DNA of 64,000 nt from Candidatus Palauibacter polyketidifaciens (GTDB lineage: Bacteria > Gemmatimonadota > Gemmatimonadetes > Palauibacterales > Palauibacteraceae). A model generated the notes under the pieces. That model saw only the letters and a program-made list of their open reading frames with translations, did no database searches and was not told the origin of the DNA. Shown here one piece after another: positions 11,145-29,998 of the stretch; position 1 is the stretch's first letter, and each line of letters begins with the position of its first letter. The position numbers were made by a program, and so were the translations under genes. The stretch is from assembly GCF_947581785.1 (NCBI RefSeq), contig NZ_CANPVO010000040.1, forward strand, positions 1-64,000, in the 5' to 3' direction.

Positions 11145-12262
11145 CCGCGCCCCTCTCACCGCCTCCGGGCCCGATCGTGGTGTTCCTCGCCGCGGGCGTC
11201 CTTGCGCTAACGTCCCCACCCGCCGCGGCGCAGGAGACCCCGGCAGTCGACGCTCCGGGCTGGATCGGGGTTCGGGTCGACGAGCGCCATAACTGCGGCT
11301 GGGAGACTTCGGACGACTGGAAGAACTGCACGCTCGTCATCCAGGTGCGTGAAATGCAGGAAGACGGGCCGGCGGCGCGTGCGGGACTCCTCGTCGGCGA
11401 TCGACTCGCCGCGATGAACGGTACGAGGATCACCCTCGTCAATCTGCCCGACCTGCTCGCATCGATCCGCCCGCGCGTCCCGGTACGGCTGCAGGTCACG
11501 CGAGACGGGACGGACCGCACGCTGGAGGTCATCCCCGACGCGCGGCCCCCGGATGCGGACGGCATCCCGATGGTGGGCCGTCGGACGATCGTCGCCGCGG
11601 CCGGGAACCCGCGGCGTGGCACGTTCGTCCTGTGGTTGACGGACTCCGACGGGCGCGACTCCACAGAGCGCGACCGCGCCGGCTTCGCCCTCGCGTTCCG
11701 CGATACGGACGAGACCGGCGTGGCGGTGGAGCCCTCCGCGGTGCGGGTCGTGGACGGCCAACTCAACGTGCTGCCCGTGCGCGACCGGCCGGCGGCGGAG
11801 TTGCCGGCGGTTCGCGTTGAAATACTCCGCGACCTGCAGCGCGAGACGGAATCGGCCTATCGGGACTTCACGCTTGCGCTCCAGAACGTCGGGGCCGTGC
11901 GGGCACGCCTCTCGGCGATGGAGTTCCGGCGTCGCGTGGCGCGTGCCGCTCGGGTGGCACTGCCGGAGCCCGATCTCGCCGTGCGCCTCCATCGCACGTT
12001 CGCGGGAGCCGAGTTCGAGCCCGTACGCGACTTTTCCGACCGTGCCGGCCTCGACGGCCTCCTCGTTCTCAGGGTCGCGCGGGGAACGGTCACCGCCCGG
12101 CTCGGGCTCCGGGCGGGAGATCTCCTTCTGAGAGCGGCGGACCGTGCGACCCGGGAACTCGAGGACCTCGTCACCGCGCTCGAATCGGAGGCCGACCCGG
12201 GTCCCACCGTCGTGTGGGTCCGGGGCGGTCAGGAGATGAGCGGGGTCTGGCCCCGGCGTTGA
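11141..12262 (+). CDS. Exported protein with two PDZ-like domains
   Basis: 373 residues with a signal peptide ending near PPAAAQ. A first PDZ-like region (about 40-130: GWIGVRVDE ... DGPAARAGLLVGDRLAAMNGTRI) and a C-terminal one (about 305-365: LDGLLVLRVARGTVTARLGLRAGDLLL) flank a helical middle. No protease triad is visible, so it is a binding or sensing protein, not a DegP/RseP enzyme. Its coupling to the anti-sigma gene suggests a role in sensing envelope state for that switch; this is inference. GTG 11141 overlaps the upstream stop; the stop at 12262 overlaps the next ATG. Confidence 0.8.
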   Translation: MTAPLSPPPGPIVVFLAAGVLALTSPPAAAQETPAVDAPGWIGVRVDERHNCGWETSDDWKNCTLVIQVREMQEDGPAARAGLLVGDRLAAMNGTRITLVNLPDLLASIRPRVPVRLQVTRDGTDRTLEVIPDARPPDADGIPMVGRRTIVAAAGNPRRGTFVLWLTDSDGRDSTERDRAGFALAFRDTDETGVAVEPSAVRVVDGQLNVLPVRDRPAAELPAVRVEILRDLQRETESAYRDFTLALQNVGAVRARLSAMEFRRRVARAARVALPEPDLAVRLHRTFAGAEFEPVRDFSDRAGLDGLLVLRVARGTVTARLGLRAGDLLLRAADRATRELEDLVTALESEADPGPTVVWVRGGQEMSGVWPRR

Positions 12263-24706: not shown

Positions 24707-26080
24707 ATGTCCGATTTCGCCGCCCATATCGACCGCGAACTGCCTCGCTTTCACGACGAACTGAAGGCCTTTCTACGCATTCCGAGCATCAGCACCGATC
24801 CCGGACATGCGGACGACGTCCGCGCCTGCGCGGATTGGGTCGCGGAGCACCTCCTCGCGGCCGGGATGCACGAGGCCGAGGTCATCGAGACCGGGGGGCA
24901 TCCCATCGTCGTCGGCGAACGGATCCACTCGGCAAAGGCCCCGACCGTGCTCGTGTACGGGCACTACGACGTGCAGCCCTCGGAACCCGACGAGTTGTGG
25001 ACGAGCCCGCCGTTCGACCCGGAAGTCCGCGATGGCCGCCTGTACGCCCGCGGATCGATCGACGACAAGGGGCAGGTCCACATGCACATCAAGGCGCTCC
25101 AGACGCGCCTGGCGTCCGGGGCGGATGTCCCCGTCAATCTCAAGCTCGTGATCGAGGGCGAGGAGGAAGTGGGGAGCCGCCACCTCGCGGCGTTCCTCCA
25201 CGAGCACGCCGCGCGGCTCGCCTGTGACGCGATCCTCGTCAGCGACACCGGGATGTTCTCCCCGGAGTTGCCGTGCATCACGACCGGACTGCGGGGCATC
25301 GTCTACACCGAGATCAACGTCCACGGCCCCCGGTCGGACCTTCACTCCGGTACCTACGGCGGCGCGGTCGTGAACCCCGCCAACGCGCTGGCCGCCATCC
25401 TCGCCGGGCTCCGCGACGAAGATGGCCGGGCCACGGTGCCGGGATACTACGAGGCGGTTCGACCCATCAGCCCCCGCGAGCGTGCCGATCTCGAACGCCT
25501 CCCCATGGATGAAGAGACGCTCCGGAGGGGCGTCGGCGCACCGGCGCTCGGCGGGGAAGCCGGGTTCTCCGCGCTGGAGCGGCTATGGTATCGCCCCACG
25601 CTCGACGTGAACGGGCTGCTCAGCGGCTTCACCGGCGAAGGCTCGAAGACCGTCCTCCCCTCGCATGCGATGGCGAAGGTGTCGATGCGGCTGGTTCCGG
25701 ATCAGGACCCGGCGCAGGTGGTCGAAGCCTTCGAGGCCCGCGTCCGCGAACTCGCGCCGGAGGGCGTGACCGTCGAGATCCAGCGCTCCCACGGCGGCGC
25801 GCCGTGGGTGGCCGACACCGAACATCCCGTCTTTGACGCCGCCTCCGCCGCGCTGGAGTCGGGGTTCGGCGCGCCGCCCGCCTACATCCGCGAGGGCGGC
25901 TCGATTCCCATCGTGCAGGAATTCGAGGAGACGTTCGGCGCTCCGGCGCTCCTCATCGGCTTCGGGCTTCCGGGAAGCAACATGCACGCCCCGGACGAGT
26001 GGATCGACCTCGAAGTCTACCGAAAGGGGATCGCCGCCCTCGCCGACCTCTACGGCCGTCTCGCCGACCCACTCGCCTGA
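24707..26080 (+). CDS. M20 family metallo-dipeptidase (carnosinase/CNDP-like)
   Basis: 457-residue di-zinc peptidase that hydrolyses dipeptides in the cytoplasm. Metal and catalytic residues are visible in order: VYGHYDVQP (His and Asp), ARGSIDDKGQV (bridging Asp), EGEEEVGS (catalytic Glu plus Glu ligand), LVSDTGMF (Asp) and the C-terminal GLPGSNMHAPDEWI (His). The inserted dimerisation domain spans about 205-330, with the His of the GPRSDLHSGTYGG block reaching the partner active site. GGGAG 5 nt before the ATG supports the start. The gene is convergent with osmC; the stops are 12 nt apart. Confidence 0.93.
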   Translation: MSDFAAHIDRELPRFHDELKAFLRIPSISTDPGHADDVRACADWVAEHLLAAGMHEAEVIETGGHPIVVGERIHSAKAPTVLVYGHYDVQPSEPDELWTSPPFDPEVRDGRLYARGSIDDKGQVHMHIKALQTRLASGADVPVNLKLVIEGEEEVGSRHLAAFLHEHAARLACDAILVSDTGMFSPELPCITTGLRGIVYTEINVHGPRSDLHSGTYGGAVVNPANALAAILAGLRDEDGRATVPGYYEAVRPISPRERADLERLPMDEETLRRGVGAPALGGEAGFSALERLWYRPTLDVNGLLSGFTGEGSKTVLPSHAMAKVSMRLVPDQDPAQVVEAFEARVRELAPEGVTVEIQRSHGGAPWVADTEHPVFDAASAALESGFGAPPAYIREGGSIPIVQEFEETFGAPALLIGFGLPGSNMHAPDEWIDLEVYRKGIAALADLYGRLADPLA

Positions 26081-26092
26081 GCCGCCGCGAGT

Positions 26093-26560
26093 TCAGTCGA
26101 CCGGGACGACGTCGAGCTCCGTCGTGATGTCGATGCAGCCGGAGAGCGTTCGGTAGACCGGACACTTCGGCGGATGGGCCTCGAACGCGCGCCGGATCGC
26201 ATCGGCGTGCGCTTCATCCGCCTGCAGACGGTATCGGGCCCGGATCCGCCGGATCACGAGCACGCCGTCGTCCGTCTCGACCTCGCCCTCCACGTTCGCC
26301 ACCAACCGTCCTTCATCCGCCTTGACGCCGCGCGCTTCCAGCGCGCCCCCGAAGGTTCCGGCCAGTCAGCCGCCGGTCGCGGCGATGACATAGTCGAGTG
26401 TCGTGGCGATGTCGCGGTTGTCGCGGACGCCGTAGTACTCGGCGACCGCGGAGTGGACGCCGAAATCGACTGGCGCATCCGTGGCCGGGATCTCTGCCGT
26501 GCGGTACGGACCCTTCTGTCGCACGATCTTCACGTGCGAGCGGTAGACGACTTCACTCAT
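26093..26560 (-). CDS. osmC: OsmC-family peroxiredoxin-like selenoprotein (in-frame TGA = Sec65)
   Basis: OsmC/Ohr-fold thiol peroxidase predicted to reduce organic hydroperoxides. Frame: ATG 26560, 64 codons to YVIAATGG, TGA at 26368-26366, then LAGTFGGALEARGVKADEGR and on to a normal stop at 26093; 155 residues. In homologues the site after ATGG is the peroxidatic Cys; the second conserved Cys is present in PPKCPVYRTLSG. Family length and both halves are intact in one frame. A stop would remove more than half the protein, and a frameshift is not needed, so selenocysteine is the best reading. A hairpin with SECIS features follows. OsmC-like proteins have been reported among bacterial selenoproteins from marine metagenomes. 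ATGA overlap with the NUDIX gene makes it the last gene of the suf-rsgA operon. Confidence 0.85.
26330..26346 (-). promoter_or_regulatory. Putative bacterial SECIS element in osmC
   Basis: In the mRNA sense GCGCGC / GCGCGC form a perfect 6-bp stem with the 5-nt loop UGGAA. A G occupies the second loop position and lies 26 nt after the UGA, within the 16-37 nt range and loop rule known for bacterial SECIS elements. The loop differs from the fdhA one (GGUCU), so it is less certain. Confidence 0.6.
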
Positions 26561-27153
26561 TGGCCGGTTCTCTCCGTGATGATGTCGAGGAAGTTCATGA
26601 CGACGCGGTGCGTGAGCCCCCAAATGGCGTCGTCCTCGTACAGGATGGAGGGCCACACATGTTCGTGGCCCCCATCGGGATAGCGGACTTCCGAGCGCAG
26701 TGCCGGATCGCGCAGCGCGCGGAGCGGAGCCCACACATGATACTGCACTTCGGCGTTCGTCGAGACCCGTGCGTCCTCCCCGTGCCACGCGACGAAGGGG
26801 GAGATGAGGATCGACGGGATCCGGCGCGTCACCGGGTGCAGGTCGTCGAGCCGTCCGAGGAACCCGTTGCGCGGAAGATCGAGCCCCACTTCCTCGCGCA
26901 ACTCGCGGCGCGCCGTCTCCAGGAGATCGGCGTCCGCCGCGTCCCGGTGCCCGCCGGGAAGCGCCATGTGGCCGGACCACGGGTCGCCGGGGAGCTCCGC
27001 CCGACGGACGAAAAGCACTTCCAGGTCGCGACCGCGCGGACGGACCACGAGGGTCACGGCCGCGTGGCGCTCCGCCGCCCCGGGGTCGACCTCGGTGTGA
27101 CCCGCCGTGACCAGCCGATGAGCGACCCGTGCCGCGCTCCAACCCTCGCTCAC
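26557..27153 (-). CDS. NUDIX hydrolase, coenzyme A pyrophosphatase type
   Basis: 198 residues. The NUDIX region reads GGHRDAADADLLETARREL then REEVGL, with the Asp-for-Glu spacing seen in NudL-like CoA diphosphatases; the preceding SGHMALPGG also fits that family. It would cleave CoA or related acyl-CoA pyrophosphates. GTG 27153 forms a GTGA overlap with the rsgA stop and is preferred to longer frames. The 3' end overlaps the osmC ATG. Together with rsgA and the sufU group this looks like one transcription unit, without a clear metabolic link. Confidence 0.87.
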   Translation of the reverse strand: MSEGWSAARVAHRLVTAGHTEVDPGAAERHAAVTLVVRPRGRDLEVLFVRRAELPGDPWSGHMALPGGHRDAADADLLETARRELREEVGLDLPRNGFLGRLDDLHPVTRRIPSILISPFVAWHGEDARVSTNAEVQYHVWAPLRALRDPALRSEVRYPDGGHEHVWPSILYEDDAIWGLTHRVVMNFLDIITERTGQ

Positions 27154-28103
27154 CGACCCTTCTCCGCCTCGTCGAGGAGGCGCAGATAGCTCTCCAGCCG
27201 CCTCCGGCCGATCCTCCCATCCTCCACGGCCGCGCGAACCGCGCAGTCCGGCTCCACCCGATGCCGGCAGTCCGCGAACCGGCAGGCGTCGCTCATCGCG
27301 GCGATCTCGACGAAGCCCCCCGAAAGTTCCGCCGGATCCAGCTCCCACAGCGCCAGGTACTGCAGGCCGGGTGTGTCCGCCACGTAGCCGCCCCCCGGAT
27401 ATCGATAGAGCGCCGACGCCACGGTCGTATGCCGCCCCCGCCCCCGCCGCTCGCTGATCTCGCCCACGCGCAGGTCGAGTTCCGGCACGATCGCGTTCAG
27501 CAGGCTCGACTTTCCCACGCCCGACTGCCCGCTGAGCACCGTGATCCGCCCCGCGAGGCGTTCCGAAAGCGCCCCCAGTCCCGCCCTCGACTCGACGCTC
27601 GTCCGCAGCGTCTCCACGCCGAGCGCCGCGTACTGTTCGAGGCCGTCCCCGGGTGCCGGCTTCCCGGCCGCCGCGCCGGAACTCGCAGCGTTTGGCACAG
27701 GCTCCGCGAGGTCCGTCTTGTTCACGACGAGGAAGGCATCGATGCCGCTCAGCGCCGCGAGCGCGAGCAGTCGGTCCACCATGAGGAAGTCGGGATCGGG
27801 CGCCGTCACCGAGACGACGACGGCGACCTGGTCCACGTTCGCCACGATCACCTGCTCGCGCCGCTTGGAGACACCGTGCCGGGAGAGCGCGCCGCTTCGC
27901 GCGCGAAGCCGAACGATCCGCATCTCGTCGCCGACGCGTTCCATCTCTACGAGGTCGCCGACCGAAACGATGCGCGAGTCCGTCCGCTTCAGGCGCCCCC
28001 GCAGCGAGGCCCGGACTACCGTCCTGGAATCGTCGACGTGATAGACCCCACCCGCGATCCGCAGCACGCGGCCAACGGTAGCGGAGGGGCCGCCGGAGCT
28101 CAC
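27150..28103 (-). CDS. rsgA: Ribosome small-subunit-dependent GTPase RsgA (YjeQ)
   Basis: 317-residue circularly permuted GTPase that helps the last steps of 30S subunit maturation. An OB-fold N terminus (about 1-75) is followed by GTPase motifs in permuted order: NKTDL (G4), GQSGVGKSS (P-loop), DTPG (G3). The C-terminal zinc region has CRFADCRH...C (CxxxxCxH...C). GTG start at 28103 with a weak ribosome-binding site. It lies 34 nt after sufU on the same strand. Confidence 0.96.
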   Translation of the reverse strand: MSSGGPSATVGRVLRIAGGVYHVDDSRTVVRASLRGRLKRTDSRIVSVGDLVEMERVGDEMRIVRLRARSGALSRHGVSKRREQVIVANVDQVAVVVSVTAPDPDFLMVDRLLALAALSGIDAFLVVNKTDLAEPVPNAASSGAAAGKPAPGDGLEQYAALGVETLRTSVESRAGLGALSERLAGRITVLSGQSGVGKSSLLNAIVPELDLRVGEISERRGRGRHTTVASALYRYPGGGYVADTPGLQYLALWELDPAELSGGFVEIAAMSDACRFADCRHRVEPDCAVRAAVEDGRIGRRRLESYLRLLDEAEKGR

Positions 28104-28137: not shown

Positions 28138-28662
28138 TCACCCGGAGCCGCCGTCGGCGTCCGTCCCGTCGCCCAGCTCCTCGAGACAGTTCCACGCCAG
28201 CAGCGCGCACTTGATGCGGACCGGAAACTTCGAGACCCCCGCCAGCGTGCGCAGATCGCCGAGGTCGTCGTCCGACAGCAGCGCTCCGTCTCCGTGCAGG
28301 AGGTGCGTGAACTTCCGGGAGAGTTCCAGCGCCTGCTCGAGCGATTTGCCCCGCACGCGTCCCGTGAGCATCGACGCCGACGCCAGGCTGATCGAGCACC
28401 CGCGGCCCAGAAAGCGCGCCTCGGCGATGCTCCCCCCTTCCACGCGCAACATGAGTTCGATCACGTCGCCGCAAAGGGGGTTGTTCATCGTGATCGCGTG
28501 CGTGGCTCCGTCCAGTTGCCCCTTGTTCCGGGGTTTCCGGTAGTGATCGAGGATGACTTCCTGGTACAGCTGGTTGAGCGACGAAGGGATTTCCCGGTCG
28601 ATCGGCCCGGGCGTGGCAGATTGTCCCGAGGAGCTCGGCGTCGTCGGACGGGGTTCGATCAT
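28138..28662 (-). CDS. sufU: SufU/IscU-type Fe-S cluster assembly protein
   Basis: 174 residues; scaffold or sulfur-acceptor partner of SufS. Conserved ligands: C64 and D66 in NPLCGD, C89 in GRGCSIS, and C152 in RIKCALLAWNC. The insert between the second and third Cys (about 100-140) is of the longer SufU kind that contains a zinc-bound acceptor and not a strict IscU. The N-terminal 25 residues are Pro/Ser-rich and probably disordered; a later start is possible. It lies 4 nt after sufS. Confidence 0.93.
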   Translation of the reverse strand: MIEPRPTTPSSSGQSATPGPIDREIPSSLNQLYQEVILDHYRKPRNKGQLDGATHAITMNNPLCGDVIELMLRVEGGSIAEARFLGRGCSISLASASMLTGRVRGKSLEQALELSRKFTHLLHGDGALLSDDDLGDLRTLAGVSKFPVRIKCALLAWNCLEELGDGTDADGGSG

Positions 28663-28666
28663 GGAT

Positions 28667-29998
28667 TCAGGCGATGCCGCCGAAGACTTCGGCTGCCAGG
28701 GCGAGCCCTTCGCACAGCACGTCGATCTCCCGCGGCGAATTGTAGAAGTAGAAGCTCGCCCGGGCCGTGCTGCTGATCCCGTAGTGGTCCATCAGCGGCT
28801 GGTTGCAATGGTGCCCCGCCCGGATCGCGATTCCCCGCTGGTCGAGGATCGTGGAGAGGTCGTGCGGATGTATGTCACCGTAGGTGAAGGAGAAGACCGC
28901 GGTCCGCCCTTCGCGCGGGCCGTACAGGTGAAGCCCTTCGATCTCGTCGAGCCGCTCGAAAACGGCGCGCTTCAGGGCGTCTTCGTGCGACGCGATCGCC
29001 TCCGATCCGAGGTCCGCGAGGAAGCGGGCGGCTTCGCCGAAGCCCACGACGCCCGAGATGTTGGGCGTTCCGGCCTCGAACTTGTGGGGAACCTTCGCCC
29101 AGGAAGATCTTTCGAGTTTCACGTCGGAGATCATCTCGCCCCCGCCCTGATACGGGGGCATCTCCTCCAACAGTTCTCTCCTAGCCCACAACGCTCCGAC
29201 GCCGGTAGGGCCACACATCTTGTGGCTGCTGAACGCGTAGAAGTCGCACCCGAGCTTCGCCACATCGGTGAGCATGTGGGGCGCGGCCTGCGCTCCGTCG
29301 ATGAGCGTCAGCGCGCCGGCGGCGTGAGCGCGGTCCACGATCTCGCGGACCGGATTGACGGTCCCGAGGCTGTTGGAGACGTGCGTACAGGCGACCAGCC
29401 GGGATCGCTTTCCGAGGAGCCGGTCGTAGTCGTCCAGATCGAGCGTGCCCTCGGGCGTGACGTCGACGAAACGGAGCTTGCACCCCGTGCGGCCCGCGAG
29501 CAGCTGCCACGGCACGAGGTTCGAATGGTGCTCCATCTTCGTGAGCACGATCTCATCGCCCGCGCCGATGGACGCGTCCCCCCAACTCGACGCGACGAGG
29601 TTCACCGCCTCCGTCGTGCCGCGCGTGAAGACGATCTCCGCCGGATCTCTCGTCCCCGCATGCGCCGCCACCGAACGGCGGGCGCCCTCGTAGGCCTCCG
29701 TCGCTTCGGCGCTGAGCTGATGCACGCCACGGTGCACATTGGCGTGTTCCTCGCGCAGATAGCGCTCGACCCGGTTCAGCACGCGGAGCGGCTGCTGCGA
29801 GCTCGCCGCGTTGTCGAGGTAGGCCAGGGGGTGGCCGTGGACTTCCCTCGAGAGAATGGGGAACTGGGCCCGGATCGCCGCGAGATCCCAGCCGCCGTCC
29901 TCCGAAACGTCACCCGCATCGCCGTGCCCGGCCGCCTCCGGGGGGCGCTCTGACGCCAAGGTGCCCGTCGCCTGCTTCGTATCCGTCATCTCCGCCAT
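28667..29998 (-). CDS. sufS: Cysteine desulfurase SufS (SufS/CsdB type)
   Basis: 443-residue PLP enzyme that takes sulfur from cysteine for the SufBCD scaffold. PLP lysine K260 in SSHKMCGPTGVG and active-site C398 in RAGHHCNQPLMDHYG. A 35-40 residue acidic, unstructured-looking N-terminal extension precedes the normal FPILSREVHGHPLAYLDN beginning. Family members also release selenium from selenocysteine, so with two UGA genes in the window it could feed selenophosphate synthesis; inference only. Start ATG 29998; ATG 29989 is possible. Confidence 0.95.
   Translation of the reverse strand: MAEMTDTKQATGTLASERPPEAAGHGDAGDVSEDGGWDLAAIRAQFPILSREVHGHPLAYLDNAASSQQPLRVLNRVERYLREEHANVHRGVHQLSAEATEAYEGARRSVAAHAGTRDPAEIVFTRGTTEAVNLVASSWGDASIGAGDEIVLTKMEHHSNLVPWQLLAGRTGCKLRFVDVTPEGTLDLDDYDRLLGKRSRLVACTHVSNSLGTVNPVREIVDRAHAAGALTLIDGAQAAPHMLTDVAKLGCDFYAFSSHKMCGPTGVGALWARRELLEEMPPYQGGGEMISDVKLERSSWAKVPHKFEAGTPNISGVVGFGEAARFLADLGSEAIASHEDALKRAVFERLDEIEGLHLYGPREGRTAVFSFTYGDIHPHDLSTILDQRGIAIRAGHHCNQPLMDHYGISSTARASFYFYNSPREIDVLCEGLALAAEVFGGIA

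What the first reader, a model, noticed from the sequence alone, without database searches (positions are those of the whole stretch)
26093..26560. OsmC-family protein with an in-frame TGA at the redox cysteine: a selenoprotein in a suf operon
The two halves of a complete OsmC protein lie in a single frame, separated only by TGA at 26368-26366. The TGA sits after ATGG, where homologues have the peroxidatic Cys; the second Cys is intact. A hairpin (26330-26346) with a G in the first two loop positions begins 19 nt after the UGA. A standard gene caller would call the C-terminal 70 residues or the N-terminal 64 residues as truncated genes. OsmC-like selenoproteins are known from marine metagenomes, but one as the last gene of a suf-rsgA operon seems unusual.
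Basis: partly seen in the sequence, partly recalled or inferred. Interest (0 to 1): 0.85.

Follow-up and report, generated by a model that had tools for sequence, protein, structure and literature searches.

The report
Selenium-containing OsmC protein with hairpin
A bacterial OsmC-type protein is written with a mid-gene stop codon that is almost certainly read as the selenium amino acid selenocysteine, in a subfamily where nearly every relative examined does the same and keeps the RNA hairpin that this needs.

Summary
Confirmed. Window 26560-26096 (minus strand) encodes a 155-residue OsmC-family protein with one in-frame TGA (26368-26366) at the peroxidatic-cysteine position. The genome holds SelA, SelB, a SelD with its own TGA, and tRNA-Sec. 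In 128 of 132 loci the codon at this site is TGA; the other 4 are distant OsmC proteins with Cys. Of 44 matches in 400 Chloroflexota genomes, 38 hold a TGA, 1 has Cys, 1 Trp, 4 are fragments. The hairpin at 26346-26330 meets the published bacterial SECIS model; 137 of 148 distinct rows keep all 7 pairs and 148 of 148 have G as first loop base. Paired codons co-vary (GCG/GCG, GCA/GTG, GTG/GCA), so the RNA stem steers Ala/Val swaps. Differences beyond the TGA are mostly synonymous. OsmC-like selenoproteins have been known since 2005, so the kind is not new. Less ordinary: a subfamily almost entirely selenocysteine, with a U-x-x-G-T motif rather than the listed UxxT. The suf-rsgA context was seen only in the host's genus. 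Peroxidase function is inferred.

The parts
26093..26560 (-). OsmC-family selenoprotein gene, 155 residues with Sec at position 65; ends with TGA at 26095-26093
   Evidence: Translation with TGA=U; Pfam OsmC 46.3 bits; 38-row alignment A1; AlphaFold2 model pLDDT 93.7 with OsmC/Ohr structures as best PDB matches
26366..26368 (-). in-frame UGA read as selenocysteine (Sec65)
   Evidence: TGA in 128 of 132 rows; Cys in the 4 distant ones; Cys (TGC) in one closer relative, L217
26330..26346 (-). bacterial SECIS-type hairpin: 7-pair stem, loop GGA at 26339-26337, 26 nt from UGA to loop
   Evidence: 137 of 148 distinct rows keep 7 pairs, first loop base G in 148 of 148; two pairs with both sides changed; 82 of 94 keep 6 outer Watson-Crick pairs against 4.2% under synonymous resampling
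26162..26164 (-). codon of Cys133, presumed resolving cysteine
   Evidence: invariant C133-P134 in the 38 rows of A1
26557..27180 (-). NUDIX hydrolase gene upstream (start approximate), overlapping the osmC start by 4 nt
   Evidence: Pfam NUDIX 58.4 bits; overlap ATGA
27150..28103 (-). rsgA
   Evidence: NCBIfam TIGR00157 207.5 bits, cut-off 100
28138..28662 (-). sufU
   Evidence: NCBIfam TIGR01994 164.7 bits, cut-off 92.5
28667..29905 (-). sufS-type cysteine desulfurase (start approximate; name from Pfam class and position)
   Evidence: Pfam Aminotran_5 475.4 bits
30027..30338 (-). Rieske-type ferredoxin
   Evidence: Pfam Rieske 65.5 bits
30335..31666 (-). sufD (B/D told apart by order, not by a test)
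   Evidence: Pfam SUFBD_core 246.6 bits
31663..33078 (-). sufB (B/D told apart by order, not by a test)
   Evidence: Pfam SUFBD_core 299.6 bits
33104..33877 (-). sufC-type ATPase
   Evidence: Pfam ABC_tran 83.1 bits; position next to sufB

Best explanation
The gene makes an OsmC-family selenoprotein. SelB loaded with Sec-tRNA binds the hairpin just behind the UGA and inserts selenocysteine at position 65, where other OsmC/Ohr proteins have their peroxidatic cysteine (decoding: strongly supported by sequence, not shown by experiment). The protein folds like OsmC/Ohr (predicted). It most likely reduces hydroperoxides: the selenolate attacks the peroxide, the resulting selenenic acid forms a selenenylsulfide with Cys133, and a thiol donor resets it (inferred from the Cys enzymes, about 0.6). 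Its place behind suf-rsgA-nudix is a habit of this genus and not part of the mechanism. The confidence below is for the selenoprotein claim.
For: Machinery in the same genome: SelA 411 bits, SelB 370 bits, SelD 375 bits with its own TGA in a GAGUACK motif, tRNA-Sec 79.9 bits with anticodon tca. Site: TGA in 128 of 132 rows; 115 of 395 Gemmatimonadota genomes match the subfamily profile and each match printed holds one TGA (list cut, and the site itself was checked only where the gene is also); of 29 matches in 19 genomes searched again, 27 hold TGA and 2 are fragments ending before the site. Co-occurrence in 100 relatives: 52 with SelA and the gene, 2 with the gene alone, 31 with SelA alone, 15 with neither (Fisher p 1.3e-4; genomes are related); both SelA-less carriers have a tRNA-Sec (79.7 and 77.8 bits); 7 of 7 carriers tested from other phyla have SelA. 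Hairpin. Downstream purifying selection: for example 15 synonymous against 3 nonsynonymous changed codons versus L028, 16 against 3 versus L029. Fold.
Against: The single-sequence fold is ordinary for its composition, and the lowest-energy 61-nt structure does not show the full stem. Of 148 rows, 11 lack the full 7-pair stem: 6 of 84 in clade A (four of them, L096 and L100-L102, with only 2-3 pairs), 1 of 51 in clade B and 4 of 13 in clade C. One relative has Trp at the site (L218). Two measures did not exceed shuffles. Identity to solved OsmC/Ohr chains is only 9-18% in the 50 listed, so peroxidase activity is an analogy. No expression or protein data.
Confidence: 0.95

Rival explanations
1. 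Pseudogene or sequencing error: the TGA is a real stop and the second half is dead.
For: A few relatives are visibly broken: L231, and the C793 copy in G660 (L232), are in pieces, and L218 is truncated with TGG at the site.
Against: TGA at the same codon in 128 of 132 rows; changed codons downstream mostly synonymous in 7 of 7 close comparisons; relatives of 50-99% identity in the 41 loci, each with the same TGA.
Confidence: 0.01
2. UGA is read through as another amino acid (for example Trp by suppression) rather than as Sec.
For: L218 carries TGG (Trp) at the site.
Against: L218 is truncated and has a broken stem pair; the full-length sense-codon relative L217 has Cys, as do the 4 distant OsmC homologues; a SECIS-type hairpin with compensatory changes follows the UGA; this gene itself ends at a TGA.
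Confidence: 0.02
3. It is a selenoprotein of the OsmC fold, but not a peroxidase: Sec65 serves another thiol chemistry (for example selenide, persulfide or metal-cofactor handling linked to its suf neighbours here, or to molybdenum enzymes elsewhere).
For: Low identity to characterised Ohr/OsmC. Of 20 nearest co-directional genes scanned, 3 belong to molybdenum-enzyme families: L093 MoCoBD, L136 XdhC_CoxI, L056 Oxidored_molyb. The acidic residue before the active site is an Asp nine residues before Sec, whereas Ohr has Glu51 ten before Cys61 (residue numbers from PMC5962072).
Against: A scan of 47 further neighbours showed no family in more than 3 of them (first 25 of 66 families shown). Sec65, Cys133 and Arg20 are invariant in 38 rows, as expected for an OsmC-like peroxidase.
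Confidence: 0.3

Closest known systems
OsmC-like selenoprotein family (Sargasso Sea 2005, PMC1088965; GOS 2008, PMC2398784; tables of 2022 PMC9312934 and 2026 PMC13188914; passages seen)
   Same: OsmC domain (PF02566, COG1765), Sec predicted as redox residue, bacterial SECIS behind the UGA.
   Different: Listed motif is UxxT; here position +3 after Sec is an invariant Gly and the Thr is at +4 in 38 rows. The 2005 table gives 3 and 10 for this family, which I read as Sec and Cys sequences; here Cys forms are almost absent. Whether the listed sequences belong to this subfamily could not be checked: figures and those records are not held.
OsmC / Ohr hydroperoxide reductases (PF02566; PDB 1ukk, 1qwi, 2onf, 6ebg)
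   Same: Predicted fold (TM-score by query length 0.57-0.76 in the 50 chains listed), reactive residue on the central helix, second Cys in a CP motif, invariant Arg near the N terminus.
   Different: Sec instead of Cys; 9-18% identity; 20.6 bits against a cut-off of 85.8 for NCBIfam osmo_induc_OsmC.
Bacterial SECIS element (model in PMC13188914, Fig. 2 legend, passage seen)
   Same: 3-nt loop, 7-pair stem, G in first two loop positions with U-GG-A-A pattern, 26 nt from UGA to loop, -13.2 kcal/mol for a 31-nt piece.
   Different: Nothing in the constraints for this gene; sub-branches L096/L100-L102 and L223/L227/L229 depart from the stem.

Membership tests
Bacterial selenoprotein gene | in-frame UGA at a site where homologues have Cys or Sec | tested here: met
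   128 of 132 TGA, 4 Cys; L217 Cys and L218 Trp among relatives
Bacterial selenoprotein gene | SECIS hairpin meeting the published model (loop 3-9 nt, stem 4-16 bp, G in first two loop positions, 16-37 nt from UGA, MFE at most -7.5) | tested here: met
   loop 3, stem 7, GG, 26 nt, -13.2 kcal/mol for the 31-nt piece (model); the 61-nt fold prefers a larger structure
Bacterial selenoprotein gene | SelA, SelB, SelD and tRNA-Sec in the genome | tested here: met
Bacterial selenoprotein gene | selenium shown in the protein | not testable with these tools
   needs 75Se labelling or mass spectrometry
OsmC domain family (PF02566) | match above the curated cut-off and OsmC fold | tested here: met
   46.3 bits, cut-off 27.5; PDB fold matches
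NCBIfam osmo_induc_OsmC (TIGR03562) | score above 85.8 bits | tested here: not met
   20.6 bits
Listed OsmC-like selenoprotein subfamily (UxxT) | Thr three residues after Sec | tested here: not met
   Gly68 at +3 and Thr69 at +4, both invariant in 38 rows
Ohr-type peroxidase | Cys/Sec, resolving Cys, catalytic Arg and Glu in the Ohr arrangement | tested here: inconclusive
   Sec65, Cys133, Arg20 invariant in 38 rows; the acidic residue is Asp56 at -9, not Glu at -10 as in Ohr (residue numbers); geometry not measured

The most novel reading that the evidence does not exclude
A distinct OsmC subfamily (three clades; in Gemmatimonadota, Chloroflexota and scattered genomes of other phyla) that is almost purely selenocysteine-based, with a single Cys form seen, and whose protein sequence next to the active site is steered by its SECIS stem: Ala/Val swaps occur in step with base pairing. 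It would be a case against the rule that Cys forms far outnumber Sec forms, and a kind that Cys/Sec-pair searches tend to miss.
Probability: 0.5. Interest if true: 0.55.

Novelty: new member of a known kind. Interest (0 to 1): 0.42.

Why it matters
It places an OsmC selenoprotein in definite, mostly uncultured lineages together with their Sec machinery, shows a gene that annotation reading TGA only as stop would cut in two, and gives an unusually clear case of coding sequence and SECIS structure evolving together. Because the subfamily is nearly Sec-only, comparing it with its rare Cys relative (L217) would test why selenium is retained.

Tried and rejected
A shared gene neighbourhood as a clue to function: of the loci, RsgA and Nudix lie upstream in 24 (L022-L030, L063-L076, L081; some are the same gene from two collections, and the genus of the named records L022-L030 is inferred from their 93-99% identity). 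The window's neighbours were found in no other locus of L022-L152, but many of those have flanks of only 1.5-3 kb. Nearest co-directional genes elsewhere (20 scanned, chosen by a GC3 filter; 47 more) gave no recurring partner. Clustering ORFs around 94 loci was swamped by spurious high-GC ORFs and is not used.

Plasmid-borne or viral origin: no match in plasmids; in viral contigs 63 stretches fitted a pattern and none was confirmed.

Single-sequence folding as evidence for the hairpin: not significant, so not used.

Stability of the subfamily tree: 38 Sec rows form one side of a branch against 16 Cys rows (95/98), but the tool warned of meeting long branches and of a bootstrap that had not settled, so a single origin of Sec is likely, not proven.

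Control shuffles (14 rows chosen by me out of the 94): two of five measures did not exceed shuffles (pairs with both sides changed, 144 of 500; further pair types, 500 of 500); cells paired, cells with both sides changed and covariation score did (0 of 500 each). MAFFT shifted the clade-B rows in the flanks of that alignment, not in the stem.

Rows dropped: one search left out contexts shorter than 60 nt (such as L061, L062) and repeats; one search left out contexts under 45 nt and repeats; its GT-motif filter removed none; some of its rows are cut short by contig ends and may repeat a longer row.

Full report
What is there. The minus strand at 26560-26096 holds one frame of 155 residues broken only by TGA at 26368-26366. 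Read through, it matches Pfam OsmC at 46.3 bits, cut-off 27.5. The start codon overlaps the stop of the upstream NUDIX gene in ATGA, and the gene closes a same-strand row sufC-sufB-sufD-Rieske-sufS-sufU-rsgA-nudix-osmC. A convergent M20 peptidase gene ends at 26080.

Can the host make selenocysteine? The assembly (97.3% complete) has SelA at 411 bits, SelB at 370 bits, SelD at 375 bits with its own in-frame TGA in GAGUACK and a tRNA-Sec at 79.9 bits (gathering score 47) with anticodon tca. In 100 relatives, 54 carry the TGA gene and 52 of these have SelA; 31 have SelA alone and 15 neither (I counted SelA above 50 bits, and counted G037, G044 and G075, which have only weak hits to Cys OsmC proteins, as non-carriers). 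The two carriers without SelA, G005 and G032, are fragmented assemblies (290 and 510 contigs) and both have a tRNA-Sec (79.7 and 77.8 bits). Fisher p is 1.3e-4, with the caution that genomes are related. Of 7 carriers tested from other phyla, 7 have SelA.

What stands at the site in relatives? One search returned 41 loci from genome contigs and one search matched 57 of 100 relatives. Of 132 rows examined by tblastn (131 loci and the window; the same gene is sometimes present twice, and the window and L063 are one gene), 128 have TGA at position 65. The 4 others (L149-L152, E 1e-5 to 3e-3) are distant OsmC-family proteins with Cys there. Of 395 Gemmatimonadota genomes, 115 match the subfamily profile at 1e-12 and each match printed holds one TGA; that list was cut, and the position of the TGA was not shown there. 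I searched 19 low-scoring or unlisted genomes again: of 29 matches 27 hold TGA and 2 are fragments that end before the site. Of 400 genomes of the phylum of G404 (labelled Chloroflexota), 38 match at 1e-6 with 44 matches: 38 with a TGA, 4 fragments without, one Cys (L217, TGC) and one Trp (L218, TGG; its match starts only at profile position 31 and one stem pair is broken). For 36 of these 38 the site itself was read; G490 and the second copy in G726 were not fetched.

Is the second half alive? Against seven close relatives, changed codons beyond the TGA are mostly synonymous: 5/1, 11/1, 6/3, 15/3, 12/3, 16/3 and 13/3 synonymous/nonsynonymous.

The hairpin. The stem covers 26346-26340 and 26336-26330, with loop GGA. 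It begins 19 nt after the UGA and the loop 26 nt after it, which meets the published bacterial model (passages seen in PMC13188914). The fold of this one sequence is not remarkable, and with 61 nt the lowest-energy structure keeps only part of the stem. Its conservation is remarkable: of 94 distinct rows, 82 keep six outer Watson-Crick pairs against 4.2% expected if codons are redrawn by the usage of eight window genes with the protein kept. Adding rows found later, 137 of 148 keep all seven pairs and 148 of 148 have G as first loop base; that base is mostly the third base of a Leu codon, for which the eight window genes use CTG in 116 of 317 cases. The middle pairs change together: codons 8 and 11 after the UGA are GCG/GCG in 40, GCA/GTG in 31, GTG/GCA in 19 and GCC/GCC (unpaired) in 4 of 94 rows. 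So in 50 of 50 such rows an Ala-Val or Val-Ala pair comes with the rare Ala codon GCA (15 of 343 Ala codons) that completes the stem. A later row, L216, has GCG/GTG, a G-U wobble. On a tree of the 94 proteins these states need 6 changes; GTG/GCA needs 3, of which well-supported branches force 2. A third clade in Chloroflexota mostly uses a different stem (GCCCU/AGGGC) with the same pairing and the same first loop G; 9 of its 13 rows keep 7 pairs. In the Cys relative 5 of 7 pairs remain and the loop reads GAT.

The protein. AlphaFold2 with 38 sequences gives pLDDT 93.7. The best PDB matches are OsmC and Ohr proteins at 9-18% identity. Sec65, Cys133, Arg20, Asp56 and His129 are invariant in the 38 rows. 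In Ohr, Arg19, Glu51 and Cys61 form the active site and Cys125 resolves (passages seen in PMC5962072). Here Arg20 and Asp56 may play those parts, but Asp56 lies nine and not ten residues before Sec, and I could not measure distances. Hydroperoxide reduction is therefore the likeliest function by analogy, not shown.

Subfamily. Eleven clade-B rows are 34-40% identical to the window's clade-A protein; many genomes carry both. The 38 Sec rows group together against 16 Cys rows with support 95/98 (with the tool's warnings). Uninterrupted OsmC-family genes coexist in the same genomes (98 of 100 have a Pfam OsmC match; list cut); the window's genome has one with Cys (L153).

What is known. An OsmC-like selenoprotein with motif UxxT was reported from the Sargasso Sea (PMC1088965, tables and legends seen: 3 Sec and, as I read the columns, 10 Cys sequences there), again in the GOS survey (PMC2398784, table passage) and in reviews of 2022 and 2026 (PMC9312934, PMC13188914, table passages). 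This gene is the same kind. [quoted passage not shown] The 2005 pipeline required at least two Cys homologues and more than 50% TGA/Cys pairs (passage), so such a family could be under-reported. I found no paper on this subfamily or on Gemmatimonadota OsmC selenoproteins in the listings of searches of open-licence PMC papers; most listed papers were not opened. PMC10469786 on Palauibacterales does not contain OsmC or peroxid-, and 'selen' only in an author name.

Verdict. The observation and the interpretation both stand. The selenoprotein is real to a high degree of confidence, of a known kind, and the suf context is a local arrangement. The surprising part is the near-absence of Cys forms and the visible grip of the RNA hairpin on the protein sequence.

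Noticed in passing
L103-L148 (clade B), for example L130 in G006: A paralogous Sec-OsmC with a motif like LPLPVDYxVAATGGUMLGTLNGALEVRG sits elsewhere in many related genomes; the window's own assembly shows none, although G235 of the same species has two matches, so a gap or loss is possible.
   Followed up: partly
L217 (G787) and L218 (G712): The only sense-codon relatives seen in the subfamily: one Cys (TGC) with the hairpin decayed, one Trp (TGG) in a truncated copy.
   Followed up: partly
L219-L230 and L232 (clade C, Chloroflexota): A third Sec-OsmC clade, most with a different SECIS stem (GCCCU/AGGGC, loop often GUC); L223, L227 and L229 keep only 4-5 of the 7 pairs and may use another stem; L232 is frameshifted at the stem.
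   Followed up: partly
L096, L100, L101, L102: A branch of the host's family with TGA but without the standard stem (GCC/GCC codons); an alternative hairpin was not worked out.
   Followed up: no
L093:159-2996, L136:3456-3995, L056:5475-6092: Genes next to the Sec-OsmC gene in three lineages belong to molybdenum-enzyme families (MoCoBD, XdhC_CoxI, Oxidored_molyb).
   Followed up: partly
L165:7862-8227 and 12162-12257 (G000 contig C14): A tmRNA gene lies about 4 kb upstream of the tRNA-Sec gene, on the same contig as selA and selB.
   Followed up: no
G150:C53:1-261 and G150:C145:30133-30324: The gene's two parts lie on two contigs, parted right at the UGA (profile 3-64 and 64-149), perhaps an assembly break at the GC-rich stem.
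   Followed up: no
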